From positions 242,762 to 306,761 of the forward strand of contig BLSF01000054.1 in the NCBI GenBank assembly GCA_012862575.1: a stretch of DNA of 64,000 nucleotides. Direction: 5' to 3'. The notes beneath the pieces were generated by a model, which worked only from the letters and a program-made list of their open reading frames with translations, was not told the origin of the DNA and did not search any database. Positions 1-62,942 of the stretch are shown in pieces. The position numbers and the translations under genes are program-made. The first letter of the stretch is position 1; every line of letters begins with the position of its first letter. The stretch comes from Parietichytrium sp. I65-24A. Its lineage: Eukaryota; Sar; Bigyra; Thraustochytrida; Thraustochytriidae.

Positions 1-1677
1 CATGGCGCCTTCGCTGCTCTCAAGCATGATGGCTCGCTACAGGTGTGGGGCAACCCCCATTACGGCGGCGACTCGAGTGAAGTGGATCTTGGATCCGGAT
101 GTCTGGCCTTGTTTGCGAACAAGTACCTTTTTTCAGTGCAAAAGGCGGATGGATTCACCGTGGCGTGGGGGTCGGGCCAGTTTCAATGGACGGACAAGAT
201 CGACCCCGTCAGTGTCGTCTCCGTTGTTGGTGTCTCTGGTGCCTTTGTCTCTAGTGCGGTAGCTGCAGTCCACCAGGATGGTAGAGTGACAACGTGGGGT
301 ACACCGGACGTGGTCGGAGAGAGTTGGCGTGTCGACTTTGAGAGTGGTGGTGGTGTTCAAGAAATTGTTGGGACTGCGACAAAGTTTGCAGCCTTGAAGC
401 GGGACGGCTCAGTGGTGACGTGGGGTGATAGTTTCTTGGATAATTTCTCGACAGACATCTCGGACGTTGACTTTCTCTCTGGAGGAGGGGTTGTCTCACT
501 CGCTGCGACGGACTATTCTTTTGCGGCTATAAAGCGTGACGGTTCTGTGGTCGCCTGGGGGTTTTTAAATTCTGGTGGGGACACTTCCTCAGTCGACTTG
601 CAGTCTGGTGGCGGCGCGGTCACTATCGCCTCCACATCAGAAAAATTTGCAGCTCTAATGAAAGATGGCTCAGTGGTGTGTTGGGGGGGGTATCCCCACT
701 CTGACGATAAACCAGTGAATCCTGCGGTTCCTTCAGGAGTCAAGGAATTGTTTGCAAATCGATATTTCTTTGCAGCCCTAAAACACGATGGGTCTGTCGC
801 GACATGGCGCGTTGTGGAAGACAGTACAAATGTGGACTTTTGGGCGGGTGGCGGAGTAAAAACCATCTACCCTTCAATCTATTTTTTTGCCGCGCACAAG
901 CATAACGGATCGGCGGTTGTTTGGGATCCACAATATCTCGACATGGTGGGATCTTATCCCTACGAAGGATCTTATGAGCCTTTGTACGTGGATAATGTAG
1001 TTTCAGTCGTGTGGAACGAGTATGCTTATGCTCTTTTGAAGGAGGATGGGTCGGTGGAGACATGGGGTTCCGACTTCTCTGGCGGAAACAGTGCTGGCTT
1101 GGACTTTTCATCTGGTGGCGGTGTGAAGAAGGTAGTTGCGGGCGGTGGATTCTTTGCTGCCCTGAAACATGATGGATCTTTGCTGGCCTGGGGCTATACA
1201 CATCGATGGGTTATCCCTGAAGTTGAATTTTCAGCTCGGGGAGGCGTCAAAGATCTCCATGCGACTGAGTGGAGCTTCGCTGCGCACATGAACGATGGCA
1301 GCATTTATAACGAGGCTACGCGCGAATTTTGGAATGCCACAGCTTTTGGTGGGATCCGGTCCATCTTAACAGACAGCAAGTCCACTGATGCAGTGGTTGT
1401 GATCGCTCGGGACGACTCTGTGCACTCGTGGAATTGCGGCCCACAGCCCGAATTCCCGAGACCGGCCAAGGAAATTTACCTCCTTGCTGGTGCATGCATC
1501 GCAGCTCTTGAGGACACCCCTTCGCCAACTGCTGCACCGACTTGGCCGACCAACACGCCCACTGCTGCACCGACCACTGTGAGCGCTGTGAGCACTGCTC
1601 CCGCGAGCACAGTTCCAATTATCGTTGGAGCAGCAGTCAGTGCTTTATCCGTGCTGTTGCAGCCGTCATTGGTCTGA
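1..1677 (+). CDS. RCC1-like repeat surface protein, copy A (5' end outside window)
   Basis: The frame is open from base 1 and ends at TGA 1675-1677, so this is the C-terminal 558 residues of a longer protein. It is built of repeats of about 40-45 residues with the pattern FAALK-DGSVV-TWG followed by GGDSS-VDL-SGGV, as in the RCC1/ATS1 beta-propeller superfamily. The C-terminus is Thr/Pro-rich (TAAPTWPTNTP) and then hydrophobic up to the stop, which fits a GPI-anchor signal. It is a tandem duplicate of the gene at 3149-6115 and aligns from that copy's base 4340 onward. Differences are a 15-bp in-frame insertion near 237, two fewer 60-bp units in the Thr/Pro tail, clustered codon changes at repeat tips, and a stop three codons earlier (TGA against TCA). 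No regulator-of-chromosome role should be assumed; a cell-surface role is inferred. Confidence 0.85.
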   Translation, partial: HGAFAALKHDGSLQVWGNPHYGGDSSEVDLGSGCLALFANKYLFSVQKADGFTVAWGSGQFQWTDKIDPVSVVSVVGVSGAFVSSAVAAVHQDGRVTTWGTPDVVGESWRVDFESGGGVQEIVGTATKFAALKRDGSVVTWGDSFLDNFSTDISDVDFLSGGGVVSLAATDYSFAAIKRDGSVVAWGFLNSGGDTSSVDLQSGGGAVTIASTSEKFAALMKDGSVVCWGGYPHSDDKPVNPAVPSGVKELFANRYFFAALKHDGSVATWRVVEDSTNVDFWAGGGVKTIYPSIYFFAAHKHNGSAVVWDPQYLDMVGSYPYEGSYEPLYVDNVVSVVWNEYAYALLKEDGSVETWGSDFSGGNSAGLDFSSGGGVKKVVAGGGFFAALKHDGSLLAWGYTHRWVIPEVEFSARGGVKDLHATEWSFAAHMNDGSIYNEATREFWNATAFGGIRSILTDSKSTDAVVVIARDDSVHSWNCGPQPEFPRPAKEIYLLAGACIAALEDTPSPTAAPTWPTNTPTAAPTTVSAVSTAPASTVPIIVGAAVSALSVLLQPSLV

Positions 1678-3148: not shown

Positions 3149-6115
3149 ATGCGTGTTGCTGTTGCTATTGCTGTTGCGGCGCTCGTGGTGAGCGCGAGTG
3201 CGCAGCAGAGGCATGTTGCGCGCGACTTGGTGGTGTGGGGCACGGACCTGCGAACTGGCTCGCTGCCAGGACAACTCGGCACCGAGCCAGTGGCTAAAGT
3301 CGTTTCAACGGATTGGAATTTCTTGGCGCTCAAGAATGATAATACCTTTGTGTTGTGGGGATTGACGCCACATAATTATTATCCAAATACAAAAGGTGAA
3401 ATTGAATTCTTCAACGCGCGATTGGGCGAGATTGACAAGATGGCAGCAGCCGCCGATTCGTTTGCAGTTACCACGAGATACAAACCGGACGGGTCCGCGC
3501 GGGAACGCCATCTTTTGTATCGTTGGGGTGAAATTGGTCGAAAAGGAGCCTATCTCTACGACAGCCCTGTTCTTGACATGGAAATTCTCGCATCGTCAGA
3601 ATTATATGGAGTGCTTCATGAGGGTGGCGTACTCTCCGTTGTGAGTTACCGAGGTGATAGCGTTCATAGAAACACCTTCATCCATAACGTGAGTTCAGCG
3701 TATGCAAATGCCGCGGGGTTTGCAATAGTCCACACAGACGGAACTTTGTCCGTATACGGGGATTACGAAGGGGACAAGGAACGGGGTATGGACGTATCTG
3801 GTGTGACACTTCCCTCTGGAGCAGAGATACTGCACATTTACTCCAACGATTATTCCTTCGCAGCGCTCATGTCAGACGGCTCTGTGGTGACGTGGGGTGA
3901 CCAAGACAGGGGTGGCAACAGCGCCAGCGTCAACTTTTCAGGCGGCATTAGGACCATCTATTCAAACTCGCAAGCGTATGCCGCTGTCAAGAATGACGGT
4001 TCCGTGGTCACATGGGGGTCTCCTGCGTTTGGAGGAGACAGCTCGAGTGTTGACTTGATCGACGTCACCGCCGTGTTTTCCACCAAGAGGCACGACACTG
4101 CTGGAGCGTTTGCGGCTCTCAAGAGTGACGGATCTGTCGTGGCGTGGGGCAGCCTAGAGTCTGGAGGCGACAGCTCCAGCGCCGACCTTTCCGGTGGCGT
4201 GCAGGCCATCTTTGCGACGTCCGCAGCGTTCGCTGCGCTCAAGTCAGACGGGTCCGTGGTGACGTGGGGGGACCTTGAGCATGGAGCTCGCGACGCAGCC
4301 CAACCAAAAATCGAAAACGTCAAGACGCTGGCGTCAACGCATGGCGCCTTCGCTGCTCTCAAGCATGATGGCTCGCTACAGGTGTGGGGCAACCCCCATT
4401 ACGGCGGCGACTCGAGTGAAGTGGATCTTGGATCCGGATGTCTGGCCTTGTTTGCGAACAAGTACCTTTTTTCAGTGCAAAAGGCGGATGGGTTCACCGT
4501 GGCGTGGGGGGTGGGCCAGTTTCAATGGACGGACAAGATTGACCCCGTCAGTGTCGTCTCCGTTGTTGGTGTCTCTAGTGCGGTAGCTGCAGTCCACCAG
4601 GATGGTAGAGTGACAACGTGGGGTACACCGGACCTGGTCGGAGAGAGTTGGCGTGTCGACTTTGAGAGTGGTGGTGGTGTTCAAGAAATTGTTGGGACTG
4701 CGTCACATTTTGCTGCCTTGAAGCGGAACGGCTCAGTGGTGACGTGGGGTCATCATTTCTACAAATATCTCTCGAAAGAGACCTCGGAAGTTGACTTTCT
4801 CTCTGGAGGAGGGGTTGTCTCACTCGCTGCGACGGACGGGGCTTTTGCGGCTATAAAGCGTGACGGTTCTGTGGTCGCCTGGGGGAATTTAAATTCTGGT
4901 GGGGACACTTCCTCAGTCGACTTGCAGTCTGGTGGCGGCGCGGTCACTATCGCCTCCACATCAGAAAAATTTGCAGCTCTAATGAAAGATGGCTCAGTGT
5001 TGTGTTGGCCCAACTGGGGCGATAAAGCAGTGAACCCTGCGGTTCCTTCAGGGGTCAAGGAATTGTTTGCAACTCAATATTTCTTTGCAGCCCTAAAACA
5101 CGATGGGTCTGTTGTGACATGGCGCACTGCGACAGAGAGTACAAATGTGGACTTTTGGGCGGGTGGCGGAGTAAAAACCATCTACCCTTCAATGCATCAT
5201 ATTGCCGCGCACAAGCATAACGGATCGGCGGTTGTTTGGGATCCAAATTATCTCGACAAAGTGGGATCTTATCTCCACGAAGGATCTTATGAACCTTTGT
5301 ACGTGGATAATGTAGTTTCAGTTGTGTCGAACGAGTATGCTTGTGCCCTTTTGAAGGAGGATGGGTCGGTGGAGACATGGGGCTCCGACGACTATGGCGG
5401 AAACAGCGCTGGCTTGGACTTTTTATCCGGTGGTGGTGTGAAGAAGATAGTTGCGGGCCGTAGATTCTTTGCTGCCCTGAAACATGATGGATCTTTGCTG
5501 GCCTGGGGCGATGCACGGGTGATTCCTGAAGTTGAACTTTCAGCTCGGGGAGGCGTCAAAGATCTCTATGCGACTGTGCGGAGCTTCGCTGCGCTCATGA
5601 ACGATGGCAGCATGTATAACCAGGCTACGCGCGAATTTTGGGATCCCACAGCTTTTGGTGGGATCCGGTTCGTCTTAACAGACAGCAAGTCCAGTGATGC
5701 AGTGGTTGTGATCGCTCGGGACGACTCTGTGCACTCGTGGAATTGCGGCCCACAGCCCGAATTCCCGAGACCGGCCAAGGAAATTTACCTCCTTCCTGGT
5801 GCATGCATCGCAGCTCTTGAGGACACCCCTTCGCCAACTGCTGCACCGACTTGGCCGACCAACACGCCAACTGCTGCACCGACCAACACGCCAACAACTG
5901 CTGCACCGACTTGGCCGACCAACACGCCAACTGCTGCACCGACCAACACGCCAACAACTGCTGCACCGACTTGGCCGACCAACACGCCCACTGCTGCACC
6001 GACTACTGTGAGCGCTGTGAGCACTGCTCCTGCGAGCACAGTTCCAATTATCGTTGGAGCAGCAGTCAGTGCTTTATCGGTGCTCTTGCAGCCGTCATTG
6101 GTCTCAAGATGGTGA
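3149..6115 (+). CDS. RCC1-like repeat surface protein, copy B (full length)
   Basis: This is a complete 988-residue protein. Residues 1-19 form a classic signal peptide (hydrophobic core, cleavage expected after ASA). The body holds about 20 RCC1/ATS1-like repeats, each with a hydrophobic strand, a K-DGSVV turn, then TWG or AWG and a variable loop. The C-terminus has a Thr/Pro spacer made of 60-bp units (TWPTNTPTAAPTNTPTTAAP) and ends in a hydrophobic segment (VPIIVGAAVSALSVLL). That arrangement fits a secreted, GPI-anchored propeller-like protein. The start is supported by the signal peptide directly after ATG 3149. No intron is needed. Its second half is duplicated at 1-1677. Its ligand is unknown; adhesion or recognition is an inference from location and from the pattern of divergence. 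Confidence 0.88.
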   Translation: MRVAVAIAVAALVVSASAQQRHVARDLVVWGTDLRTGSLPGQLGTEPVAKVVSTDWNFLALKNDNTFVLWGLTPHNYYPNTKGEIEFFNARLGEIDKMAAAADSFAVTTRYKPDGSARERHLLYRWGEIGRKGAYLYDSPVLDMEILASSELYGVLHEGGVLSVVSYRGDSVHRNTFIHNVSSAYANAAGFAIVHTDGTLSVYGDYEGDKERGMDVSGVTLPSGAEILHIYSNDYSFAALMSDGSVVTWGDQDRGGNSASVNFSGGIRTIYSNSQAYAAVKNDGSVVTWGSPAFGGDSSSVDLIDVTAVFSTKRHDTAGAFAALKSDGSVVAWGSLESGGDSSSADLSGGVQAIFATSAAFAALKSDGSVVTWGDLEHGARDAAQPKIENVKTLASTHGAFAALKHDGSLQVWGNPHYGGDSSEVDLGSGCLALFANKYLFSVQKADGFTVAWGVGQFQWTDKIDPVSVVSVVGVSSAVAAVHQDGRVTTWGTPDLVGESWRVDFESGGGVQEIVGTASHFAALKRNGSVVTWGHHFYKYLSKETSEVDFLSGGGVVSLAATDGAFAAIKRDGSVVAWGNLNSGGDTSSVDLQSGGGAVTIASTSEKFAALMKDGSVLCWPNWGDKAVNPAVPSGVKELFATQYFFAALKHDGSVVTWRTATESTNVDFWAGGGVKTIYPSMHHIAAHKHNGSAVVWDPNYLDKVGSYLHEGSYEPLYVDNVVSVVSNEYACALLKEDGSVETWGSDDYGGNSAGLDFLSGGGVKKIVAGRRFFAALKHDGSLLAWGDARVIPEVELSARGGVKDLYATVRSFAALMNDGSMYNQATREFWDPTAFGGIRFVLTDSKSSDAVVVIARDDSVHSWNCGPQPEFPRPAKEIYLLPGACIAALEDTPSPTAAPTWPTNTPTAAPTNTPTTAAPTWPTNTPTAAPTNTPTTAAPTWPTNTPTAAPTTVSAVSTAPASTVPIIVGAAVSALSVLLQPSLVSRW

Positions 6116-21883: not shown

Positions 21884-24229
21884 ATGGACAAGCCATGCAA
21901 GATGTACGAGCCCCACCCGATCTACGGGCTGGTGGGAAAGTGCAAGAACTGCACGTTCCAAGCCGCTGAGCATAAGCAAAAGGCGATTGTCAAAGGAGCC
22001 CGCGCTGCTCGCCCGCCGGAGAAGGAGGAAATTGTGGTTAGGAGCAGCTCCGTCGTGCGTGCCACTGACCCTCGCGACATTGCAAAGGCCCGCGACTACT
22101 TGAGTCATGTGACGACGAAGGAGACGAGGGCGCGAAAGCGATCCAAATCTCGGCCGCCCGAACCGAAACCCATCGAACCTGTCCTCGTGGCACCGAAAGG
22201 GAAAAAAAAGCCAAAGGCCCACTCTAGATCCCGAAGCGCCAGTCGCGCATCTCTGGCCCAGCCTCGTGCCCGCAGCAAGAGTCGTGAGGCTTCTGTGGTT
22301 GTAGTGGAGCGCCCACGGAGTAAGAGCAGGTCTGCAGGCTCTCGCAGCAAGCCTACAAAGTCCAGTGCGAAGAGCCAAGCGAAGATGGCCGCTGCTGCCA
22401 CAAACGATGTGAAGCCAGCCAAGCAAACCCGAAGCCGCTCTCGCTCCAAGGACAAGCACCGTGACAAGGAGCCCACTGCAAGCTTAGCCAAGCCAAAAAT
22501 TCGCTCCACCAGTCGTGCAAGATCCAAGAGCAAGAGTTTGAAAGCTTTAGAGAAGGACGCCAAAGAAGCTGAAGCGATGAAGATCGCCGAGATGGTTGCA
22601 GAGCGGGAGGAGCAGATTCGGAAAGCCAAAAAGCTGCTCCGAAAGAAAGCAAAGCAGTCGGAAGCTCGGGGAAGTGTGGCCCGTCGCTCGGACTCTGAGG
22701 AGTCCGATTCAGAGTCGTCTTCCTCGGGAGAGTCGGACGTGAGCGCAGAGCGCGATCGTCGCCCACCGTCAGAATCAGAGTCAGAATCAAGTGTAACTTC
22801 CGAATCAGAATCGCAATCTGAGTCTGAGTCTGAGTCTCAAACTTCCGAGTCAGAATCTGAATCTTCAGATGATGAACGCAAGAAGCGGATGCAGCTGCTA
22901 GCGAAACGCAAGGAGGAGCGAGCACGTGTCATCCGCAGGCTTTCTCAAATTGAAAAACGTAAGGCGGGAAGAAAAGAGTCCTCTTCCGAAAGCAGCAGTA
23001 GCAGTAGCGAGGAAAGCAGTGAAGATGACGGAAAGTCTTGTGGAGGAGGATCAGTGGCCTGGAATATCGTCGGCGGTATCGCGCGCACCATGTTGGGAGG
23101 CTTCACGTCGGGGAAAGAGGAATCAAGCGATTCTGACTCCGACAGCAGCTCCTCCTCGTCTTCCGACGACGGTGCTCGCGGTCGACGAAAGACTGCACAG
23201 GCGTCTCGCGCTCGTGGAGCCTCGACTGCATCGAGGCTCTCTGCTGCGAGAAAGGCTGCTTATGATCGAGCTGTTCGTCAACGTCAGCGAGAGCGAGCAG
23301 CCTCTCAAACAAGACGAGCCAGTGTGTCGTCAAAAGCCAGAGGTTCGAGCAAAGCAAGAGGCCGGCGCGAATCGACATCTTCGAGTTCATCAGCATCCTC
23401 TGAGTCTGATTCGTCCCAGTCATCCGTCTCGTCACCGGAAAGGCAAGTGCCCAAGGGCTCACCTCAACACCGATCAAACATACGAACAAAGTCCATTTTG
23501 AAGAAATCGCCAGGACAGCGCCAGCGTTCGCGATCACGTTCGCGATCAGCATCAAACTCACGAGCGAAAACAAGCTCTCGTCCGCGATCAAGGTCCAGAT
23601 CGCGCTCGAGATCGAGGTCGCGTTCTGCGAGCAGATCTCGCGCGCACAAGCATAAGGACAAGTCCAGATCCAGGGCTACTTCCCACCGCCGCAATGAAAG
23701 TAGCAGTAGCTCAGAATCCTCTGAAGAGGATATTCGGGCTCGGAAACGCTCGGCTTCTCGCCACTCCGTGAAAAAGAATACTGCTTCTACGAGGCGTAGG
23801 AGCAAATCTCGTCGCGTCTCCTCGTCGTCAGAAAGCGAGTCTTCGGCGTCAGACTCAGGCTCCGAAACTTCCGATATCGACTCTGACGACTCTGAAGTCA
23901 TCGCACAAGCGAAGAAGGAAGAAGCTGACGCATTGAAAACGAAGCTGCTCAAGGAGAAAATTAAGCGCCGCAAAAAGGACCTCAAGCGTAACGAAAAGCA
24001 GCGTAAGAAGATACTAAAGCTCGGGCGGGAGCACGAGAAGGAGAAGGCTGCTGCAGAGAAGGAAAAGCTGCACCGAGAAGACCGCTCGAAAGATCGCGAA
24101 CGCCGCAAGCAACGGGCACGCTCGCGCTCACGCTCTGTGGAGAAGGCGCTTGAGAGGACTCGCTCGGCATCCAGGGCTTCAAAGACCTCTCGAAAGCGTG
24201 GAAAGAGCAAGGTGAGATCGCGAAAGTAA
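21884..24229 (+). CDS. RS/SE-rich nuclear protein
   Basis: A 781-residue low-complexity protein. The N-terminus (residues 1-35) has a small Cys-containing segment (MDKPCKMYEPHPIYG, KCKNCTF). The rest alternates basic Arg/Ser blocks (repeated RSRS dipeptides around residues 110-230 and 540-600) with acidic Ser/Glu blocks (SESESESS around 265-330). Residues ~670-740 are Lys/Glu-rich and probably a long helix. RS domains of this kind are SR-kinase targets in splicing and nuclear-speckle proteins. No RNA-recognition motif is visible, so it is not a classical SR protein; it resembles SRRM or PRP38-tail scaffolds in composition only. The ATG at 21884 starts the conserved-looking Cys segment. Confidence 0.72.
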   Translation: MDKPCKMYEPHPIYGLVGKCKNCTFQAAEHKQKAIVKGARAARPPEKEEIVVRSSSVVRATDPRDIAKARDYLSHVTTKETRARKRSKSRPPEPKPIEPVLVAPKGKKKPKAHSRSRSASRASLAQPRARSKSREASVVVVERPRSKSRSAGSRSKPTKSSAKSQAKMAAAATNDVKPAKQTRSRSRSKDKHRDKEPTASLAKPKIRSTSRARSKSKSLKALEKDAKEAEAMKIAEMVAEREEQIRKAKKLLRKKAKQSEARGSVARRSDSEESDSESSSSGESDVSAERDRRPPSESESESSVTSESESQSESESESQTSESESESSDDERKKRMQLLAKRKEERARVIRRLSQIEKRKAGRKESSSESSSSSSEESSEDDGKSCGGGSVAWNIVGGIARTMLGGFTSGKEESSDSDSDSSSSSSSDDGARGRRKTAQASRARGASTASRLSAARKAAYDRAVRQRQRERAASQTRRASVSSKARGSSKARGRRESTSSSSSASSESDSSQSSVSSPERQVPKGSPQHRSNIRTKSILKKSPGQRQRSRSRSRSASNSRAKTSSRPRSRSRSRSRSRSRSASRSRAHKHKDKSRSRATSHRRNESSSSSESSEEDIRARKRSASRHSVKKNTASTRRRSKSRRVSSSSESESSASDSGSETSDIDSDDSEVIAQAKKEEADALKTKLLKEKIKRRKKDLKRNEKQRKKILKLGREHEKEKAAAEKEKLHREDRSKDRERRKQRARSRSRSVEKALERTRSASRASKTSRKRGKSKVRSRK

Positions 24230-39741: not shown

Positions 39742-42700
39742 ATGCGCCCGGTGTCCGTCAAGTTTAATTGGAATGGGCTGTCCAAGTCGCTGTGGGTGAA
39801 CCCTGGCATGAGCCCAGACGACCTTGCGTCAACACTTTGCGCTTCGTTCGGGCTTCCAGAAGATGCCATCGAAGGCCTTTTCGTGGCAGAGACTGGGAAG
39901 AAGGTCGATTTGGAAAGGATCTGCGAGAGCCCGTCGCTGTTCGGATCATACGCTGGCATCCACATCATCCTCTCCGATGATGAAGACGATGACGACGATG
40001 ATGAAGACGATGATGATGATGATGATGATGATGACGATGATGATGATGATGAGTTGCTGAGCCCTACAGATTCCGCGGCGCTGGTTCCTACCGTGGATTC
40101 TACCGCGATGGAGCGCAACGCACAGGAAAAGACGAATCTAACCACCATCAGTCGTCTGCTGCACCTGGACGAGTGCAATGTAACAGACGTATTTGACGCC
40201 TTTGCAGACGCTGCGCACGATGGCACCCTCAATCTGAAACAGTTCCGAGATGCTTATTATGCGCTCATGAGAAGAAAAGGTCTCGCGGTGAGCAATGTCG
40301 ACACGCTTCTCGCAAAGCTCTTCGCGATTTTCGACCAAGACAACAACGATTTGGTGGATTTTGAAGAGCTTGGGTCTGGTGTCACAATCCTCACCGGCGG
40401 ATCCCGTGACGACAAAGTGCGCGCCGCATTTAGGTAAGTTTGCTGCGTTCCGGTGGACGAATCTGTGTTTGACCCTCACGCTGACTGGAATCTCTTTTTT
40501 GCTCCACAGTCTCTACGACTATAATAACGATGGGTACATCACCATCGACGAAATGATTAGCTACATGAGCTCAGTGTTCAAGCTTCTGTTTGCATCTTCA
40601 GACATTGAGTCGTCCATGGGCGTTGATAGTGATGAACTTGCAGAAATTACTGCCAAGCAGTGTTTTGAGGAGGCAGACTCTGATCAAGACGGTCGCCTCA
40701 CCTTTGAGGAGTTCCAAACCTGGTACTCCAAGCCGTCTTCGATGCGCCAAACTCAGATGTTTCCAGTGGGTAATCCTGCGGCCCCGCCGCCTCCTGCATC
40801 TCAGTCTGGAAGTGGCAAGAGACACACCGCCGCATCTGCAATCCCTGGCTCGCTGGCGTCGCAGGGGATCAGCCTTGACCGGGTGCGAAGTATCACCGGG
40901 GTGGCTTCTCTGGACATCTTCTCTGTGTTTGATCAGTTCGCCATGCGCGTCAACCGCGAAGGAACTTTGACATGGGAAGGGTTTCACGACGGCTTTGTTG
41001 CCATCCGGGACATGGCTGGCATTAAGCACACCACACGGGAGGAGATTGCTCTCTTTCAGACAATTATTCGTAGGCTATTCGATCTATTCGACTCGGACGG
41101 TAACGGGGTTGTGGACTTTGTTGAACTCTCCGCCGGCTTGTCCGTTCTTGCGCGATCGATGTCATCGCCGGACGAAAAGCTCAGGGCTGTGTTCAGCCTC
41201 TTAGACGTCAACGGTGATGGTTTCATCTCCGTGGTCGAGATGGAATCTATGCTGGAATCCATCTTCAAGACTCAGTACGAGATCTCTCCAGCAGCCATTG
41301 AAAAAGCGGGCGGACTGGACCCAGCTTCCCTCGCTCGCATCACCACATTGAGCATTTTCCAAGCTGGCGACCTAGACCGCGACCAGCGCTTGAGTTTCGG
41401 AGAGTTTGCACGCATCATGATGTCTGATGAGGGCAGGTTACTTACTGGTCCTCTCACTGGCCAAAAACCCGTGATCAACCTGAAAGCTGCCGCAGAGCTC
41501 TCTGGACTCGATAAGTTGTCCATCGAGGATCTCTTTGACCTTCTTTCAGAGTTTGTGGAGGCTGGCAAGGATGGCCTTTCTCGCCTCGGTTTCCAACGAG
41601 CGATTGCTTCCGTCGCGCCAAGGGGCATTGATCAGAGCGAGCTCAAGCAAGTTCTTTCCCACATCTTCGACTTGTACGACGAAGGGAACGGATTCGCAAA
41701 ATTTGAGATACTCGCATCAGGTCTCAGTTTGCTTTGCAAGGCTGATATGATGGATCGCGCAGAGGTCGCTTTTAACTTGTTTGATCTCGATGGCAACGGC
41801 GTCCTCTCACAAGACGAACTTATCGTCTACTTTATTGGAGTGTTCAGACTCATTTTCGGCTCTGACCCGACTGCTCAACAGCGCGCTGGCGTTGATGCAG
41901 ATAGCTTGGCTAAGGTTACGGTGCGCTCTATCTTTGAGGAGTTTGATATCAATAAAGACAATGTTCTGTCGTGGGAAGAGTTCCAGCACTGGGTTGCTAG
42001 AAGCAACGAGGGCAAGCCTCCGCCGGCCGTGGCGAGGCCTCCGTCCGCCCCTGGGGCACCGCGCCTCGCCCGGAACGATTCCTCGGCAGCGGTCGAGACC
42101 ATCCCATGGATGTCTCTTCGCGAGGTTCGTCGTCTTACGTGCCTCGATCAATACAACACGGAGGAGGCCTTCGATATTCTCGCTGACTTTGCGGACGAAG
42201 AAGGCTACCTTGATAAACAGTCATTCTTCAGATCATTCCATCGAATTATCGGTAACAAAGGTGGGCATGTAGACGAAGAGGACTTGGACCGTTTGCGTCT
42301 TGTTCTGCATCGCCTTTTCGACACCTTTGACACAGATGGCAATCAAATGGTCGATTTTAGTGAGCTGTCCAGCGGACTCAGCATTCTCTGTGCGGGTAGC
42401 GAGCATGACAAAGCCAAGGCTGCATTCCAGCTCTACGATGTCGACTCCGATGGCCGCATCTCGAAGCAGGAGCTCTGCAGGTATTTGACCTGTGTGTTCA
42501 AGGTCATGTACCAAACCCAACCCGGAACTAGGCAGCAGACAGGGTTCGTGTCTGCGGAGGAACTCGCCTGGAATACCACTCTCAAGGTGTTCGAGGAAGC
42601 GGACATGGATAAGGACGGATACATTGACCTTGAGGAGTTTAGGCGTTGGTACGGTCAGAGCACCGGGCAGCAGCTTAGTGTTGCTGCGGACCTCATTGCC

Positions 42701-45700
42701 CAGGACCCAGATTGGTTCAGCATTGAAGAAATCAGGCGGCTTACAGACCTCGACAAGTTTGACTCCAATGACTTGCTGCAGCTCTTCGCCGACGCCGCAA
42801 AGGAAGATTCAGCAGCCGCCAAAAAGGCTCCGGGCAGCCGCTTAGTAAAGCGCCAGTCCACATCAAACATGGTAATCAGCCGCGACTCATTCGACGCCGT
42901 CTTCCAGGATCTGGTCAATGAAGAGAACTGTGCTACGGAGGACGACTTTGTGCGTCTGACCTTCATCATGGATCGCCTTTACGACATGTTTGATATCAAT
43001 GGTGACGGGAAGGTGGACTTTTCCGAACTCTCTGTTGGGCTAAGTGCGCTCTGTAAGGGATCCAAGCAGCAAAAGCTGGAAGATGCCTTCCATTTGTTTG
43101 ATCGCAACGGCGACGGGAAAATCGACCGCTCTGAGATGCAGAGCCTTTTGGAATCCTTGTACAAGGTCATGTTTTCCACGCAGCCAAACCTGAGACTCAA
43201 GCTCGGCAACATCACCCCAGAAGACCTAGCCAAGGCCACCGCGGATGAAGCCTTCTCCCTCGCGGACTTGGATCGCGACAACCAGCTGACTTTCGAGGAG
43301 TACCGCAAATTCTTTTCGCAACCTTCCGGACAAGCACTCCAAAACATCGTTGAGAGTGCCCCTCCGTTCGTCTCGATGGACGAAGTACGCCGCTTGACCA
43401 AGATTAGCAATTTCTCTGCCGAGGATATTCGAGATCAAATCGAGTCCTTCTCCAACCCGAACGGGGAGATTACTCGTGACTCGTTCATCATGGCGATGAA
43501 GGAGATCGCAATTGAAGGAAACAACGGGCGCACCATGTCTCTCAACGAAGAGGGCCACTTCACTCAGGTGGTCCAGCGTCTCTTTGACATCTTTTGCTCG
43601 GAGGGCAAGACGGTGTTGAACAAGGCGGATTTGGTGGCTGGACTTTCAATCCTCGCGAGTGGCGACAAAGACAGCAAGGCGCGAATTGCCTTCGATGCTG
43701 TCGACTACGACAATAATGGGTCCATCTCCATTCACGAGATGGAGCGTTACCTTCTCTCGGTCTTCAAGCTGATGTTCCGCTGCCAGCCTGAGACCGCAAA
43801 GCAGATGGGAGATGTCACTCCGGAGATGCTTGCGCAAGCCACGGCGGACTCAATCTTCATCGAAGCGGATTTGGATGGAAGTGGTGAGCTTTCATTTGAA
43901 GAATTTCGAAAGTTCTACAACTCCCAGACCTCCTCGCAAGGCCCCGCATTTCGCGAAATCGTTGAGACTGTCCCAAATTGGGTGTCTCTTCCTGAGATCC
44001 GCCGCTTGACTCGCTTGGAGCACTATTCCCCGACTGACGTTTTTGAAATTTTCGCCAAGCAATCTACGGACGGAGAACTGGACCGAAACTCTTTTGAGCG
44101 CGCGTTCAGGGAAGTTGCGATTGGTTCGAACCACCCGCTGAATTCCACCGAGCTTGACAGACTCCATCTGGTCATCAATCGTCTCTTTGAGGCTTTCGAC
44201 GCAGGGTCTGGCAAGATCGAGTACATAGATCTCGTGGCTGGACTCTCCGTGCTCTGTGGTGGCTTCCAACGCGCTGAAGCCGCTTTTCAGCTCTACGACT
44301 TCAACAATGATGGATTCATCGACCGCGACGAAATGCAGTCCATGCTTGAGTCGGTCTTCAGGGTCATCTTTGAGCTGCAGCCAGGCACCCAGGAGCGCTT
44401 GAATGCGGAACCGCAGCAAGTCGCTGCAGCAACCTGTAGTGCCATCTTTGCGGAGGCCGACCTAAACGGCGACCAGCTTCTCTCCTTTTCCGAGTTCACC
44501 AAGTGGATGGGTTCGAACCAGGGTGGCCTTCCGGGAATGTCTCAGCCGCAGCAGCGTGCGAACAATGCTCCAGCGAGGGCCACCTCGTCAGAAGACCTCA
44601 TGTCAGTTGATGAGATCAAGAGAATTACCGGGTTGGAAAACTGGAATCAGTCTGACGTCTTTGAAGAGTTTGCCATTGCTGTAGATGACCAGGGCACTCT
44701 GGACGAAGTGCGCTTCCGCCGTGTCTTCTCCAAACTCATCGATGAGTCTCGTCTGAGTCCAGCGGACAGGCAGCGAGTTCCAATGGTCCTCTCTCGCCTC
44801 TTTGATATTATGGATTCAGACGGAAATAGGCGTATCGACTTTAGCGAACTCGGCGCGTGCCTAAGTATCTTGTGCAAGAACAATCGCGACGAAAAGGCAA
44901 GTGTCGCGTTCACAATGTTTGATGAAAATGGGGACGGCTTTGTCGATCGCAGTGAGATCGAGAGATACTTGGCCTCAGTCTTTCGTATGATGTACGAAAC
45001 TACACCTGGCGTTGCTGAGAGCGCGGACGGCCTGTCACCCGAGGAGCTTGCGGAAATTACAGCGGATGATATTCTCGTCCGCCACGCTGCTGGTCAGGAG
45101 CGCCTTAGTTTTGGACAGTTCAAGGCTTGGTACGATGAGTCTGATATACCGAGCGTCCGCTCGCCACCACGCGCTGCCTTTTCGGCAAGCCAAGAATATA
45201 AAGAGACTGCCGCCTCTCTGCCTCCTGCCCCGGGCATCATCAAAGCAGTACCCGTCGATGCAGAGACATCCCCCGACTGGCTCTCCATCGAGGAGGTGCG
45301 ACGATTGACGGGGCTGGATAAACATGAGCTCGATGTCGTGTTTGAGGAGGTCGCTTCGTTTTCGGACGACGGCGTGCTCGACAGGCAGGCGTTCAACACT
45401 GTGTTCTCAAGGCTGATCGGTAACAGAAGACTGAGTCCTGAGGACCAGCGCAAGCTTCAAGTTATTCAAGCCCGCTTGTTTGACATCTTCGACACCGACG
45501 GGAATGGTGTGGTAGACTTCGCGGAGCTCGCAAGCGGCCTAACTGTCCTTGCAGGCCAGAGCTCATCCAACAGCCTTGATTCCAAAGTGGACGCTCTGTT
45601 CACCCTGTACGATTTGAATGGTGATGGCTACATCACGTTCAAGGAGCTTGTGGGAAGCTTGTGTTCCATTTTCAAGGTCATGGTGGAGTGCGAGCCGGAT

Positions 45701-47260
45701 GCAGCTCGTAGGATCTCATCTGCTGGGTCTCCTGAAGATCTTGCTCATGCGACCGCGTTGAGCATCTTTGCCGAGGCCGATCTGAACGATGACAACAGAC
45801 TTTCCAAAGAAGAGTTTAAGCGATACATGGCGGCTTCGTCTAGCATGCCAAAGTCGCTGATGACGATCTCTAAACGCGCCGTACATAGCGAAGTTATCAC
45901 TCTGGATGTGGCGAAGCGCATAACTGGTCTTGGAGAGCTCAGCGCTGACACTCTATTCCAGGAGCTAGCAATTGTCACTGATTCGGAGGGTATGATCTCT
46001 CGCCACGAATTTTACATGCTTATGCATCGCATTTCCAGTCTCGCTCCAGAGCCGCTCGACTCGGCTGAAGAGCAGTCTATGCTGAACCTAACATTGGAGA
46101 GGCTTTTTAACGTGTTTTCGTCGGGCGATAAAGCAGATTTCATTGAAATCGCATCGGGGCTGTCGATCCTCACCCAGAACGGAGGGAGAGTGGCTGATGA
46201 AACCAGTGGAAATGCCAGCATGGCTGCATTTCAGCTGTACGACTTGAACGGTGATGGGTACATCTCCATGGACGAGATGCGCACCTTTCTGACAAGTCTC
46301 TTTCGCCTCTTGTTTGAGTTCATGCCTGGAACTGCAGAGAGAGCGGGGACGTCCGCCGAGGCTCTCGCAGCCGCAACTACCGAGCAATGCTTTGAGGACG
46401 CCGATCTGAACAAAGATGGCCGCTTGAGCGGTGAGGAGTTTTCGTTGTGGTTTTCGGAAGGCGGCATCCTTCCTGGGGTAGGGGCTGGCGACGCCAGGAA
46501 TGGGGCAGCTGAGTCTCATTTCAGAAAGACTGGGTTGGACAAAGTAGGTGAAGCTTCTGGCCCGATGTCTGGGCTGTCGGAGATCAAGAGACTGACCAAA
46601 CTTGGCAGCTTCGACGTTGATGAGGTGATGGAGTCAATTCAGTCTATTGCCGGCGATAAGCCGTTGGATTTTGCAACTTTTGTGAGCGTCTTCGAGGACC
46701 TCATCGAAGCTGGGGGCGGCCACGAGAGCTATCAGGACCAGGTTGCAGCAAGCTCCGTTGTGCGAGCCCTCTTCCACCTCTTTGACCAAGATGGAAACGG
46801 CTATGTAGACCCTCGGGAGCTTGCTGCTGGCCTCTCAGTACTGACAACAGGTAAGTGTGCTTTATCACCTCTCATCGCCTCGGACTTTTTTGAAAGGCTC
46901 ACAGCTCTCTTGCGTTTCAGGGTCCCGCGAAAGCAAAGTTCGTACTGCATTCCAGCTCTATGACTACGATGGGGATGGATACATTTGTAAGTTTTTTGGA
47001 TCTTGCCCGACAGGAAGAGTCGAGACGACAACACTGACCACTTTCATTCTATTGAAGCTTTGGATGAGATGGTGCGGTACCTCACAAGTGTTTTCAAGGT
47101 GCTCTATGCCGCCCAGCCAGAAACAGCCAACACATTTGGGGTCTCTGCTGAAGTGCTCGGGACAGTCACTGCCGAGCAGTGCTTCTTAGAGGCTGACACC
47201 GACAACGACGGAAGACTCAGCTTTGAGGAGTTCCAGGCTTGGTACGAGAAATCCCAGTAG
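39742..47260 (+). CDS. Giant EF-hand protein, eleven calcineurin-B/NCS-like modules
   Basis: Exons 39742-40433, 40510-46850, 46921-46986 and 47058-47260 give 2,433 residues. Residues 1-77 look like a ubiquitin- or PB1-like fold (inferred), followed by an Asp/Glu run (79-107). The rest is eleven modules of ~200-225 residues starting near 130, 351, 557, 763, 965, 1184, 1387, 1596, 1820, 2026 and 2249. Each has a lead helix (EIRRLTGLD-like), a cryptic EF-hand without a full loop (GxLDRxSF), then three EF loops such as FDTDGNGVVDFAE, YDLNGDGYITFKE and ADLNDDNRLSKEE. This is the four-hand layout of calcineurin B, CBL and NCS proteins. Of 33 loop positions I judge about 28 able to bind Ca2+. No enzyme domain, signal peptide or membrane segment is seen. 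Likely a cytosolic calcium-binding scaffold or buffer. Confidence 0.9.
39979..40050 (+). repeat. GAT/GAC triplet array coding for poly-Asp
   Basis: A run of mostly GAT and GAC codons encodes the acidic linker between the N-terminal domain and the first EF module. Such arrays are length-variable. Confidence 0.88.
40434..40509 (+). other. Intron 1, 76 bp (EF-hand gene)
   Basis: GTAAGTT donor, GCTGACT branch-like site, TTTTTTGCTCCACAG acceptor. Joins AG to T and restores AAFSLYDYNNDGYI, just before the second loop of module 1. Confidence 0.95.
46851..46920 (+). other. Intron 2, 70 bp (EF-hand gene)
   Basis: GTAAGTG donor and GCGTTTCAG acceptor. Restores TTGGSRESKVRTAFQLYDYD in module 11. Confidence 0.93.
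46987..47057 (+). other. Intron 3, 71 bp (EF-hand gene)
   Basis: GTAAGTT donor, ACTGACC branch-like site, CTATTGAAG acceptor. Leaves a 66-bp exon and restores DGDGYISLDEMVRYL. Confidence 0.93.
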
Positions 47261-47401: not shown

Positions 47402-49739
47402 TCAATGGAAAGTGATGACCTGGACAGACCAGGCCAACAGAACAACAAGTGCAAATCCGCGCAAGGTCCACTTCGAAAACAGGAAATGGGGTTTCTCTAG
47501 GGGCCGTGCGCGCAGGGGGTGAGCGGAGTTTTCCATGAGCTGCTCATCCATTGAAGGGCTTACGGAAGACTGTGCCGCGGTAATCGAAGGAGGGTCGTCT
47601 GCTAACGACAGCTCAGTGAGATCAATATCAGTGGTGTGAAGTGCATAGTCTGGCTGCTGTTGCCAAGTCGGAGGACTGTCCATAAAATCATCAGAAACCG
47701 ATCTGCTGTGTCGCAATCGTACAGGTGAGGAAGATTCCGTGGTGGGGTGGCGGCGAAGCTCGATCTCTACGCGCCGGTTCTGGCCGGTATCGGAGTCATC
47801 CGTGGCAACCTCCTTCATTCCCCTGTGATAATACTCACCCATGAGTTCATCAAAGAGGGACCACCTATGCATCAGGGATCGCAGGTTTGGGTGTGCTTGG
47901 TCGTCCGTATCATCTCCGGCTCCCAGGGCAGCATAGCTTCTCGAGAAGAAGAACGAGAGTGCGAACAGGACAGCACTCCAGACCCAGAAAGAAATCGCTG
48001 CAAAGTGGAGAAAGTTGACGGACGTGAACCAGCCAAAGTACGCCCCGCGCTTGGACTGGATTGAATCGTTGGCTTCCTCGGCATCCGCGTCCTGCTCCAC
48101 AAGAATGGCGTCTTCCAACAGCTCTAAGACGAAGCGCAGGAGGCCGGAACCCAGGCCGAGGGTCAGCGTCCAATTCGCAGCCTTGCGCTTCGGTTTCGTG
48201 GATAGCATTCCCCAAATGTAGAGGCACAAGATTGGGGGAGCGAGATACGAGGGAGGTTTTTGGATGATGAGGAACAGGCTGCTTCCCAACAGGTGCATAA
48301 CAGGTAGCCAAAGCAAGCTCAGGCAGGCCATGACGACGACTGTAATCCGACCGACGTTTACCAGTTTGCGCTCAGAGGTCTCCGGGTAGAGGTCCTTCCA
48401 AATGTTTAGAGAGAAAAGTGTCGCACACGAGTTGAACGTGCTGGCCAGGGCAGACATGAGCGAAGAGAGCATGCTGGCAACAATCACGCCTCGCGCGTTG
48501 ATTGGCACGACATTGAGCACGAGCCAAGGGTATGCCTGATCGTAGCTAAACGCGACAAGATCCAGAGTCAGCGACACAATGAGAGCGAACCAACAACCAC
48601 TTCCTTTTCCCCAACACATGGCGCAGAGCACAAGCACAAGCAGCACTCGGCGGCCGTAATATCCAAAGCAAAGAAAATACTTACTCAAAGGTCTTAAGCT
48701 CCTCCTCGCTGAGCCTTGAGTTGACAATTACTCGCGCGCATAGCCCCGGCACGATCATCATGAAGAACGGTAGAAACTTGAGGCACGCCGCCACGATGCA
48801 GCCCAGCTGGCCGTGCGCCACATTCTTGGCCGCCAGCACGCGCTGCACGATGACCTGATCCACGCACCAATACCACGGCGCGATGACGTAGAACCCGAAC
48901 AGGAACCCTGTCCACGGGTACACCGGGTCGCTGCCATCCCTGAAGAAATGCATGTAGTCCTCCCCCACCCGCAGCTCCTCCGCCGTGTCATTTCCCGCGA
49001 GCCCTTCCAGCCCGCGCATGAGCCCTCCCCAGCCGTCCACTTCCGCCAGCGAGAACGAGATCACCATAATCCCGCCCACCAACAGCACCATAGTCTGCAG
49101 CGCCTCCGTGTAGATCACGGCCTCCAGCCCACCCAGCACCGTGTACACAGTAGTAAAGCACACGAGGATTACCACGGCGACCCACTTGTTCACGTGCACC
49201 AGCTGCACGAGGATGAGCTGCCCAGCGAAGAGCGTGGCGCTGACCCTGGTGAAGATGTACACCAGCAGGGACACCCAGACGATGAGGGTCCTGCAGTACT
49301 TGCTGTAGCGCTTCTCCAGGTAGTCCGGCGTGGTCTGCACGCCCGCGGTTAGGTAGATCGGTAAGAACAAGAACCCGGCCGCCAGAACCACGGGGATCGC
49401 GCCCACTTCGTACCACCCCACCGCGGTTCCGCTCTTCGCAGCGCTGCCCGCCAGCCCGATGAAGTGCTCGGAACCGATGTTGGACGCGAACAGCGACGCC
49501 GCCGCCGCCCACCAGCTCACGCTGCGTTCCGCAAGGAAGTAGCGCTCCGTTGCCGGAACGTTTCCCCCGCCGTTCGCGGAACGTTCCTCCACGGAGTCCC
49601 CGGAGTCCCCGGAGGTCCCGGAGGAGGTGGCATACGTCGCGGCCTGATGATGGTGGCGGCTCACCCACGCGGACACGCAGCAGAGGAGCACAAAGTACGC
49701 GCAGAGTACGCCCACGTCCACTGGGCCGAGCGCGGACAT
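47402..49739 (-). CDS. Sodium/solute symporter, SLC5/SGLT type (two exons)
   Basis: Exons 48685-49739 and 47402-48545 (minus strand) give 732 residues. The first half has the SSS-family core: NIGSEHFIGLAGSAAKSG (the SGLT TM1 signature with G-to-E in SGHF), FVPIY-like LFLPIYLTAGVQTTPDYLE, LLVYIFTRVSATLFAG and AVIYTEALQTMVLLVGG. The second exon continues with YDQAYPWLVLNVV and SSLMSALASTFNSCATLFSL, which carries the conserved Na2-site serines. Later there is a long cytosolic loop and a final hydrophobic helix near the C-terminus, as in SGLT proteins. Likely substrate is a sugar, inositol or similar solute; not decidable here. The gene ends 141 bp from the EF-hand gene, tail to tail. Confidence 0.92.
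48546..48684 (-). other. Intron, 139 bp (SLC5 gene)
   Basis: On the minus strand: GTAAGTA donor, GCTGACT branch-like site, GTCGCGTTTAG acceptor. Joins GA to C and gives TFDYDQAYP, matching the SLC5 family. Confidence 0.94.
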
Positions 49740-61214: not shown

Positions 61215-62942
61215 CTACTGTGATGGAGACGAAATCCCGTTTGCTCTCATTTCCTCTTCGTGCACTGTGTTTTCGTGCTCTGCCAAAGATTCTACGAATC
61301 CCGATAGAAGATTTTCAAAAATAGAACTGCCAGTAACGGTTTGAAAAGCATGTCTCATGACTCGATTGCTCGCTAATTCTCGCTGCGGATTGGCTGCAGT
61401 CTGGACCATGTGAATCAGCCTCTTTGCAATTGCCTGTTGTAGAAAGGTGTCCATAGACTCTCTAAACGCGACACTCTCTCCTTTGGTAGCGACAGTCTCC
61501 ACAAGCTGCTCCACAATACACCGCTCAAGAACTCTATGTAGGAGGGCGGAAATGGTGTCATATTCTGCAAGTTTTTGGCGGCCCACCAGGACTTCGTTGG
61601 CCTCTTCCATGCACTCTTCGACAACTTCTTGCGCCTCCTTCTCCATGAAAGTGTTAATGATGTGATCTCCCAAAAGTTGTATCTCGTGGTCTCGAGCAGC
61701 CTCATTGACGATCAGGCGGATTTGAGGCATCAACAAAGAGTCCAGAAACACCTCAAATTGCTGATACAATAAAAAGTCATTGACCATCTCACTGAGAGAC
61801 TCCCGAACTACCTCAGCTGCCAGACTATCGACAGTTTCGTTGACGATGATTGTAACGCTGCGGTACATCGGGTCGTTCTCCTTTTTGGAAGTTTGAACTT
61901 GCAGAAAAGATTCCATAAAGTCCCGAAGAGCGTATCTCACTGCGCCTTTGATCTCGGAACCAACGACGGACTTGATGATGTTATCCGCAACTTCATAGCT
62001 AATTTGCTCTTCGAACGATACTGGCTCATACTCTTCTCTTCTGTGCGTGAGCACATCAATAATAACGTTAGGGATGAATTCCCCCTGGAGATAGTCTTCA
62101 AGCAAGGCATCCAACACCTCTCGGCTCAATCGATCAAAGAGGTCCTCGACGAGCTCCTTGCGAATTGCGTAGCCACGGTAGTTTTTCTGAATGACACATG
62201 CGCTCTCGGCAAGCTCGAGCTCCGATTGATTCGATCGCCGCCTTCTCCGAGCCTTCCTTTTTGCGGCGTGACTGCCACGGGCTCTCGACGAAGAGGAGGA
62301 CGATGCAGAAGATGGGGAGGATATACAAGACGACGACGACGACGAGGAAGACGAGGAGCTGGAATCAGACGAAGTATAAGATCCATCAGAGCTACTCTCT
62401 GACCTACGCCGACTTCTTCCTCGGTTCCTGCGTCTAGAATCTTTCTTATCTTGCCTTTTCCGAATCCTGTTGGATTTTTTATCTTTTGAAGATTTTTTCT
62501 CCCGCATCTTGCCTTTTCCAGACCTCTTTCTACTCTTCTGGTGCTTTTTCTTTATCTTCCTCTCCTTTGAATGAACGCGACTCGTCCCACCCGAGTAGAC
62601 CTTTATGCTGATAGGTCGGGCAGCTTCTGCAGCAAATGCCGAAGCAGCGGGAGACCACGGCACATTCCCCTTGGGACTACCACAAGAGACACATGTTGGC
62701 GCCCCAATCCCAATACCTCTGTTTTGCAAAATCGCTTCCTTTTCGCCATGAACTGCCACATCCTTTTCCGCCAAGCCCCTCTGCAGCGCAGGGCGCATGT
62801 CGACGCTATCACTATCGCTCTTGGCAGCAACAACGCCAATGTTTAGACTTGCCGATCGGTCTTTGCTGCTTCCCCGGAGCTGAACGCTCTCCAACAACAT
62901 TGCATTTTGAGCGGACGCCACCAAATGCTTCTGGTCCGACAT
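61215..62942 (-). CDS. IQ-motif protein with Ser/Arg-rich N-terminus
   Basis: A 575-residue protein. Residues 1-110 are mixed. Residues ~120-240 are basic and Ser-rich (KKKHQKSRKRSGKGK, a run of Ser near 195-225). An IQ motif lies near 247-262 (CVIQKNYRGYAIRKEL), a likely calmodulin or EF-hand protein binding site. From ~263 to the end it is almost wholly helical and acidic, with heptad-like spacing (LFDRLSREVLDALLEDYL, YEVADNIIKSVVGSEIKG). I do not recognise the family. IQ-helical proteins are common in flagella and cytoskeleton, which is a guess here. ATG 62942 is the first in frame. It ends 182 bp from Pol5, tail to tail. Confidence 0.7.
   Translation of the reverse strand: MSDQKHLVASAQNAMLLESVQLRGSSKDRSASLNIGVVAAKSDSDSVDMRPALQRGLAEKDVAVHGEKEAILQNRGIGIGAPTCVSCGSPKGNVPWSPAASAFAAEAARPISIKVYSGGTSRVHSKERKIKKKHQKSRKRSGKGKMREKKSSKDKKSNRIRKRQDKKDSRRRNRGRSRRRSESSSDGSYTSSDSSSSSSSSSSSSCISSPSSASSSSSSRARGSHAAKRKARRRRRSNQSELELAESACVIQKNYRGYAIRKELVEDLFDRLSREVLDALLEDYLQGEFIPNVIIDVLTHRREEYEPVSFEEQISYEVADNIIKSVVGSEIKGAVRYALRDFMESFLQVQTSKKENDPMYRSVTIIVNETVDSLAAEVVRESLSEMVNDFLLYQQFEVFLDSLLMPQIRLIVNEAARDHEIQLLGDHIINTFMEKEAQEVVEECMEEANEVLVGRQKLAEYDTISALLHRVLERCIVEQLVETVATKGESVAFRESMDTFLQQAIAKRLIHMVQTAANPQRELASNRVMRHAFQTVTGSSIFENLLSGFVESLAEHENTVHEEEMRANGISSPSQ

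What the first reader, a model, noticed from the sequence alone, without database searches (positions are those of the whole stretch)
39742..47260. Eleven calcineurin-B/NCS-like units fused into one 2,433-residue protein
Seen: eleven modules of ~200-225 residues, each with a lead helix, one cryptic EF-hand and three loop-bearing EF-hands in the order and spacing of calcineurin B, CBL and NCS proteins. That makes 44 EF-hand positions, about 28 with good Ca2+ loops. Known: this fold normally occurs as a single ~170-220 residue protein that binds one partner helix. Inference: a chain of eleven could bind many partner helices at once and respond to calcium cooperatively, or act as a large calcium buffer. 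I know of no described protein with this architecture.
Basis: partly seen in the sequence, partly recalled or inferred. Interest (0 to 1): 0.88.

Follow-up and report, generated by a model that had tools for sequence, protein, structure and literature searches.

The report
Giant eleven-unit calcium-sensor chain protein
A gene from an unidentified eukaryote strings eleven calcium-sensor units, each like a whole neuronal-calcium-sensor protein, into one predicted 269 kDa chain that probably works as a calcium-tuned multi-site binder, but what it binds is unknown.

Summary
A four-exon gene (39742-47260, +) with three GT-AG introns encodes 2,433 residues without an internal stop. Eleven modules of 186-227 residues share 26-44% identity. 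Canonical Ca2+ loops: EF1 0 of 11, EF2 7, EF3 11, EF4 10; 28 of 44 positions. DNA matches between modules are short, so misassembly is unlikely. By profile the modules lie nearest NCS/KChIP proteins, ahead of calcineurin B and calmodulin; fold matches agree but superpose poorly. They are not NCS proteins proper: no Met-Gly start, no Cys-Pro in EF1. Best explanation: a Ca2+-modulated multivalent scaffold rather than a simple buffer, since five loops decayed while the modules persisted. Partner, transcript, organism and conservation are untested; no eukaryote collection was searchable. Closest described: oomycete proteins with 8 and 10 EF-hands (PMC5322657) and Tetrahymena CFAP115, a fourfold EF-hand fusion (PMC10105768). 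A new variant of a known kind, unusual in scale.

The parts
39742..39975 (+). N-terminal domain, residues 1-78, tentative beta-grasp (ubiquitin/PB1-like) fold
   Evidence: No Pfam match for residues 1-79 and only chance PDB sequence matches, best E 0.31. AlphaFold2 on residues 1-84 alone: mean pLDDT 74.4 for the best of five models, the others 48-57. Foldseek: PB1, ubiquitin, NEDD8, ISG15 and others; best E 0.011, none at or below 0.001; TM by query 0.45-0.64 in the top five.
39976..40053 (+). Acidic run, residues 79-104 (23 of 26 Asp)
40132..40861 (+). Module 1 (residues 131-348), split by intron 40434-40509; EF2, EF3, EF4 loops canonical
40434..40509 (+). Intron 1, 76 bases, GT-AG
40862..41467 (+). 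Module 2 (residues 349-550); EF2, EF3, EF4 loops canonical
41468..42103 (+). Module 3 (residues 551-762); EF2 loop broken by a one-residue deletion
42104..42709 (+). Module 4 (residues 763-964); EF2, EF3, EF4 loops canonical
   Evidence: AlphaFold2 of modules 4-5
42710..43363 (+). Module 5 (residues 965-1182); EF2, EF3, EF4 loops canonical, about 20-residue insert in EF1
43364..43975 (+). Module 6 (residues 1183-1386); EF2 loop degenerate
43976..44593 (+). Module 7 (residues 1387-1592); EF2 loop broken by a one-residue deletion
44594..45274 (+). Module 8 (residues 1593-1819); EF4 loop degenerate
45275..45886 (+). Module 9 (residues 1820-2023); EF2, EF3, EF4 loops canonical
45887..46558 (+). 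Module 10 (residues 2024-2247); EF2 loop broken by a two-residue deletion
46559..47257 (+). Module 11 (residues 2248-2433), split by introns 46851-46920 and 46987-47057; EF2, EF3, EF4 loops canonical; stop at 47258-47260
46851..46920 (+). Intron 2, 70 bases, GT-AG
46987..47057 (+). Intron 3, 71 bases, GT-AG

Best explanation
One soluble, acidic polypeptide of about 269 kDa made of eleven NCS-like four-EF-hand sensor units behind an N-terminal adaptor-type domain. Shown by sequence: eleven units, 28 canonical Ca2+ loops, EF3 intact in all eleven, no stretch hydrophobic enough to suggest a membrane helix. Inferred: each unit's EF3-EF4 lobe takes up Ca2+ and exposes or remodels a surface that holds a partner helix, while the EF1-EF2 lobe is Ca2+-binding in seven units and fixed in four. 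Fusion in one chain would give many weak contacts at once (avidity), suited to a partner with repeats, such as a cytoskeletal filament or a multi-helix or clustered membrane protein, with the N-terminal domain tying the chain to a further factor. Tandem fusion of an EF-hand unit that binds a periodic lattice is already known in Tetrahymena CFAP115, where four units give a 32 nm repeat in place of 8 nm (PMC10105768, passages). That this protein binds a filament is speculation.
For: Continuous reading frame and clean introns. EF-hand ligand residues are shared above background: EF3 positions 1 and 12 identical in 11 of 11, against mean column identity 0.32 outside ligand positions. Features that bind no Ca2+ are kept too: the lead-helix Thr (9 of 11), the last Leu of the GLSxL segment after EF2 (11 of 11), a Pro after EF3 (10 of 10 modules with a residue there), and the Thr of L-A-x-x-T before EF4 (11 of 11). 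Five of 33 EF2-EF4 loops have lost Ca2+ ligands while their modules stayed full length, which fits a binding scaffold better than a buffer. The PDB profile search puts NCS/KChIP proteins first; of 43 Foldseek matches with E <= 0.001 to the modules 4-5 model, 32 are NCS-family entries by my count, many of them repeat structures of NCS-1 and hippocalcin. Highest 19-residue hydropathy 1.49; pI 4.40.
Against: No partner, localisation, expression or Ca2+-binding data. The fold matches superpose badly: TM by target 0.36-0.47 and rmsd 9-13 A for 31 of the 32 NCS-family entries, the exception being apo NCS1p at 0.64 and 5.6 A, so a compact NCS shape with its groove is not demonstrated. The model came from four rows only (pLDDT 77.7, pTM 0.58) and the stretch joining modules 4 and 5 has pLDDT under 50, so no fixed geometry between units is supported. 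Linkers vary from 21 to 52 residues counted from the end of the EF4 loop, which does not suggest a strict ruler. Many positions outside the ligands are poorly kept; the EF1 region averages 0.24, which is not what a shared, conserved partner surface there would give. The 28 loops plus the acidic run would also suit a buffer.
Confidence: 0.5

Rival explanations
1. High-capacity Ca2+ buffer or store: many EF loops and an acidic run simply add up binding sites in one soluble protein.
For: 28 canonical loops, pI 4.40 and 23 Asp in a 26-residue run; no recognised partner-binding domain apart from a tentative N-terminal beta-grasp.
Against: Five loops lost while their modules stayed intact, and several non-ligand signature positions strongly kept. 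EF1 is loop-less in all eleven units, so a quarter of the EF-hand positions have no canonical Ca2+ loop.
Confidence: 0.22
2. Constitutive structural scaffold, for example an axonemal or cortical filament protein of the CFAP115 kind, in which EF-hands serve mainly as a fold and Ca2+ matters little.
For: Precedent: CFAP115 of Tetrahymena holds four EF-hand-pair domains against one in Chlamydomonas FAP115 and repeats every 32 nm instead of 8 nm (PMC10105768, passages); [quoted passage not shown]
Against: EF3 ligands are intact in 11 of 11 modules and EF4 in 10 of 11, more than a purely structural role needs. No chain named FAP115 was among the best 60 PDB sequences shown. Nothing here shows that this organism has flagella.
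Confidence: 0.2
3. Gene-model or assembly artefact: several single-module genes, or an array inflated by misassembly.
For: No transcript evidence. The three splice junctions rest on sequence reading and on fit to the module pattern.
Against: 0 stops in the coding frame of the 6.3 kb exon against 38-134 in the other five frames. Modules share 26-44% protein identity and only three DNA matches of 39-78 bases at E <= 1e-3, which argues against recent duplication or misassembly. Codon third-position GC is even along the gene, 0.56-0.67.
Confidence: 0.05

Closest known systems
Neuronal calcium sensor (NCS) family: NCS-1/frequenin, neurocalcin, hippocalcin, KChIP, GCAP, recoverin
   Same: Four EF-hands, EF1 without a Ca2+ loop (family trait recalled), Ca2+ loops in EF2-EF4, best profile score in the PDB among unfused chains.
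   Different: Eleven copies in one chain; no Met-Gly start for myristoylation; no Cys-Pro in EF1; seven more residues between EF3 and EF4 than neurocalcin; a lead region with no Pfam match in 8 of 8 modules tried and no good PDB match, the best being a calcium-dependent kinase at E 0.0004.
Calcineurin B and plant CBL
   Same: Four-EF-hand order and single-unit length near 170-220 residues (recalled).
   Different: Calcineurin B has four working loops (recalled) where the modules have at most three, and a shorter EF3-EF4 joint: 14 gap columns against the module profile in the calcineurin B part of chain 4il1_A. Lower profile score.
Phytophthora infestans PITG_10150 and PITG_04603 (8 and 10 EF-hands; PMC5322657, passages)
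   Same: Eukaryotic proteins whose only stated feature is an unusual number of EF-hands; orthologues said to be present in zoosporic and azoosporic oomycetes.
   Different: The passages give no module structure, and their sequences could not be fetched, so kinship with the window protein is untested. They hold fewer EF-hands.
Tetrahymena CFAP115 (PMC10105768 and PMC8742875, passages)
   Same: An EF-hand unit that is single in one species is fused into a tandem chain in another.
   Different: Four units, not eleven; a microtubule inner protein. Sequence kinship not tested; no chain of that name among the best 60 shown.
EF-hand proteins of highest hand number in a published table (eight and twelve: LpS1 and EF12; Table 1 of PMC4415241, passages)
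   Same: Multi-EF-hand proteins.
   Different: 44 EF-hand positions here, 28 with good loops.

Membership tests
NCS family | EF1 without a canonical Ca2+ loop (recalled feature) | tested here: met
   0 of 11 EF1 regions has a canonical loop (alignment and pattern)
NCS family | Ca2+ loops in EF2, EF3 and (often) EF4 (recalled feature) | tested here: met
   EF2 7 of 11, EF3 11 of 11, EF4 10 of 11
NCS family | Cys-Pro in EF1 (recalled feature) | tested here: not met
   No Cys-Pro in any of the 11 EF1 regions printed
NCS family | N-terminal myristoylation (Met-Gly start; not in every KChIP; recalled feature) | tested here: not met
   Protein starts Met-Arg; modules are internal
NCS family | Single-module protein of about 200 residues | tested here: not met
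   Eleven modules in one reading frame
NCS family | Compact two-lobe fold with a helix-binding groove | tested here: inconclusive
   Model pLDDT 77.7; NCS entries lead Foldseek but 31 of 32 with TM by target 0.36-0.47 and rmsd 9-13 A
Calcineurin B | Four canonical Ca2+ loops (recalled feature) | tested here: not met
   At most three per module
Calcineurin B | Binds the helix of calcineurin A | not testable with these tools
   No partner data
Calmodulin | Four canonical loops in two equal pairs and top sequence score | tested here: not met
   EF1 loop-less in 11 of 11; calmodulin scores below NCS with the nine-module profile, though mixed with NCS for module 9 alone
FAP115/CFAP115 | Sequence kinship to FAP115 | tested here: inconclusive
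   No chain of that name among the 60 shown of 197 or of 539 matching PDB sequences; the rest were not shown
FAP115/CFAP115 | Tandem fusion of an EF-hand unit | tested here: met
   Eleven tandem modules

The most novel reading that the evidence does not exclude
A Ca2+-gated multivalent ruler or clamp: eleven NCS-type sensors in one chain, each gripping one partner helix along a repeated structure, with six three-loop units and five two-loop units (EF2 lost in modules 3, 6, 7, 10; EF4 lost in module 8) responding at different Ca2+ levels, so the chain grips or releases stepwise. Such a graded, covalently linked array of NCS-type sensors is not known to me.
Probability: 0.2. Interest if true: 0.8.

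Novelty: new variant of a known kind. Interest (0 to 1): 0.5.

Why it matters
NCS-like sensors are known as single small proteins, each with one binding groove (recalled). A native chain of eleven, with some Ca2+ sites lost and at least two kept in every unit, would be a natural test of what avidity and graded Ca2+ response add to such a sensor, and goes well past the eight and twelve EF-hands in the published table of which I saw passages (PMC4415241). It also gives cell biologists working on protist Ca2+ signalling a single tractable candidate.

Tried and rejected
Relatives: one scan of viral contigs with the whole central exon gave none, one with module 4 none, and a pair alignment of modules 4 and 9 gave two loci. 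In both, L004 and L005, the matching stretch is the same letters, with the pattern hit but no EF-hand pair by eye, and the module profile finds nothing in reading frames of 40 or more residues of either (one search confirms that both were read). A degenerate DNA pattern gave 0 stretches in viral contigs and 3 in bacterial and archaeal genome contigs: two planctomycete proteins with scattered EF-hands and one EF-hand oxidase-like protein of a Polyangiaceae bacterium, none of them an array of such modules (Pfam on two of the three). Module 9 against the same genome contigs: none. Phage records: none for the end of module 1 to module 5. All these collections hold viruses or prokaryotes, so the misses say nothing about eukaryotes.

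An NCBIfam match (XopAW, 291.7 bits against a cut-off of 120) was rejected as the summed score of ten EF-hand stretches in a 2,113-residue repeat protein; no kinship to a bacterial effector is claimed.

Fixed spacing between modules: from the EF4 loop end to the next module there are 50, 21, 41, 24, 21, 24, 33, 52, 24 and 40 residues. Modules 4-7 are joined by similar stretches (24, 21, 24), but so are modules 2-3 and 9-10 (21, 24), and the model gives low confidence between modules 4 and 5, so I do not claim a rigid core.

Duplication history: the tree is star-like, with seven of eight inner branches open and none starred; only modules 1 and 11 group, at 89/88. Their introns sit at different places, so shared introns do not confirm the grouping.

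A three-module alignment was unusable because rows overlapped and aligned to themselves; a two-module alignment of non-overlapping pairs replaced it.
Full report
What is there. The region 39742-47260 on the + strand holds a gene of four exons (39742-40433, 40510-46850, 46921-46986, 47058-47260). The three introns are 76, 70 and 71 bases long, begin GTAAGT and end CAG, CAG and AAG. The central exon of 6.3 kb has no stop in the coding frame, against 38-134 in the other five. A convergent sodium:solute symporter-like reading frame ends at 47402 on the other strand, so little room is left for further 3' exons. Introns and gene content say eukaryote; no whole genome is held for this window and the lineage was not established.

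Modules. From residue 131 the protein is eleven modules of 186-227 residues, 26-44% identical in pairs. DNA matches between modules are limited to three stretches of 39-78 bases at 76-85% identity, so the array looks old rather than a product of misassembly. Codon third-position GC is even along the gene, 0.56-0.67, and close to five neighbouring reading frames, 0.54-0.69. A profile of the modules finds no copy elsewhere in the window.

EF-hands. By alignment, EF1 has no canonical Ca2+ loop in any module (0 of 11). EF2 has a good loop in 7 of 11 (lost in modules 3, 6, 7, 10), EF3 in 11 of 11, EF4 in 10 of 11 (lost in module 8). Total 28 of 44. The recalled PROSITE-type pattern also finds 28 sites; 1,000 shuffles of the protein averaged 0.03 and reached at most 1. 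Of the 28 loops 20 have Gly at position 6 and 8 do not (counted on the list). Pfam EF-hand models match strongly: EF-hand_1 E 2.4e-142 with 20 stretches in the central exon. EF3 ligand positions 1 and 12 are identical in all eleven modules, against a mean column identity of 0.32 outside ligand positions. Some residues that bind no Ca2+ are also kept: the last Leu of GLSxL 11 of 11, a Pro after EF3 10 of 10 where a residue is present, a Thr before EF4 11 of 11, the lead-helix Thr 9 of 11; the EF1 region as a whole is poorly kept, 0.24.

N-terminus. Residues 1-78 are not EF-hand. There is no Pfam match for residues 1-79 and only chance PDB sequence matches. A structure prediction for residues 1-84 alone gave beta-beta-alpha, short helices and a last strand, with mean pLDDT 74.4 in the best of five models, the other four at 48-57. 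Foldseek lists PB1, ubiquitin, ISG15 and NEDD8 among others, best E 0.011 and none at or below 0.001. I call it a tentative beta-grasp domain. Residues 79-104 are an acidic run with 23 Asp. The whole protein has a predicted mass of 269 kDa, pI 4.40 and a highest 19-residue hydropathy of 1.49, too low to suggest a membrane helix.

Kinship. A profile of nine of the eleven modules (2-10) against PDB sequences lists 539 at E <= 0.001, 60 shown. Leaving out the first row, a calmodulin-calcineurin fusion whose score sums several domains, the order is neurocalcin 86.7 bits, hippocalcin-like 1 86.3, calsenilin 82.6, then other NCS and KChIP proteins; best unfused calcineurin B 71.6; calmodulin 68.3. 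The joint between EF3 and EF4 is 7 residues longer than in neurocalcin, and 14 gap columns stand against the calcineurin B part of the fusion chain. Against this, with module 9 alone calmodulin (48.6) stands level with hippocalcin-like 1 (48.7), below the NCS-1 of entry 1fpw (54.7), so the NCS preference rests on the profile. The first 60 or so residues of the modules (8 of 11 used) match no Pfam family in 8 of 8 and no PDB sequence better than E 0.0004, a calcium-dependent kinase. A predicted structure of modules 4-5 (four-row alignment, pLDDT 77.7, pTM 0.58) shows in each module a lead helix and four helix-strand-helix units. Of 43 Foldseek matches at E <= 0.001, 32 are NCS-family entries, 3 calcineurin B, 2 CBL/SOS3, 2 secretagogin, 2 dystrophin or its complex and 2 PR70 (my count); many are repeat structures of one protein. 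Superpositions are poor (TM by target 0.36-0.47 and rmsd 9-13 A for 31 of the 32; apo NCS1p 0.64 and 5.6 A), so the compact NCS shape is not shown.

How it most likely works. The chain is best read as a soluble, Ca2+-modulated, multivalent binder: units of NCS type joined so that many weak contacts add up. Loss of ligands in five loops while the modules stay whole, and conservation of some residues that are not ligands, speak against a buffer, in which sites alone would matter. The universal EF3 and nearly universal EF4 loops speak against a purely structural role. Both rivals stay open. [quoted passage not shown] PMC8742875 (passages) describes two EF-hands in each of two domains of FAP115. 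Uneven linkers of 21-52 residues and low confidence between modules 4 and 5 argue against a rigid ruler here.

What is known. A published table of EF-hand classes goes up to proteins with eight and twelve hands (PMC4415241, passages). In Phytophthora infestans two proteins with 8 and 10 EF-hands are called remarkable and novel, with orthologues in zoosporic and azoosporic oomycetes, one induced more than 100-fold in sporangia (PMC5322657, passages); a search for their locus tags found only that paper. Whether they are relatives could not be tested. Nine literature searches gave no description of an array of NCS-like units of this length in the titles and abstract starts shown; several listed only part of what they found, and the library lacks most subscription papers. 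The twelve passages seen of PMC7016017 mention nothing of the kind.

Verdict. It is a new variant of a known kind: NCS-like units, which are normally single, in an eleven-fold covalent chain.

Noticed in passing
L002:2202-4211 (JABFRG010000225.1, Polyangiaceae MAG): A bacterial reading frame with N-terminal EF-hands followed by ferric reductase transmembrane, FAD-binding and NAD-binding domains (Pfam), laid out like EF-hand-regulated NADPH oxidases of eukaryotes (comparison recalled).
   Followed up: partly
L001:4854-6344 (+) and L003:176-2332 (-) (Planctomycetaceae MAGs): Two planctomycete proteins, alike by eye, with scattered EF-hands in Gly- and Arg-rich chains (Pfam run on L001 only).
   Followed up: partly
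window 43-1677 and 3149-6115, + strand: Two nearby RCC1-repeat reading frames, perhaps neighbours by duplication.
   Followed up: no
window 21884-24229, + strand: A 781-residue reading frame with no Pfam match at E 0.01, in a stretch with strong A-over-T skew (0.244 at 22001-24000).
   Followed up: no
window 61215-62942, - strand: A 575-residue reading frame with a weak, below-cut-off IQ calmodulin-binding motif.
   Followed up: no
window 40434-40509, 46851-46920, 46987-47057: Introns occur only in the first and last modules; the nine middle modules lie in one exon. Modules 1 and 11 are also the only pair that groups in the tree (89/88), yet their introns sit at different places.
   Followed up: partly
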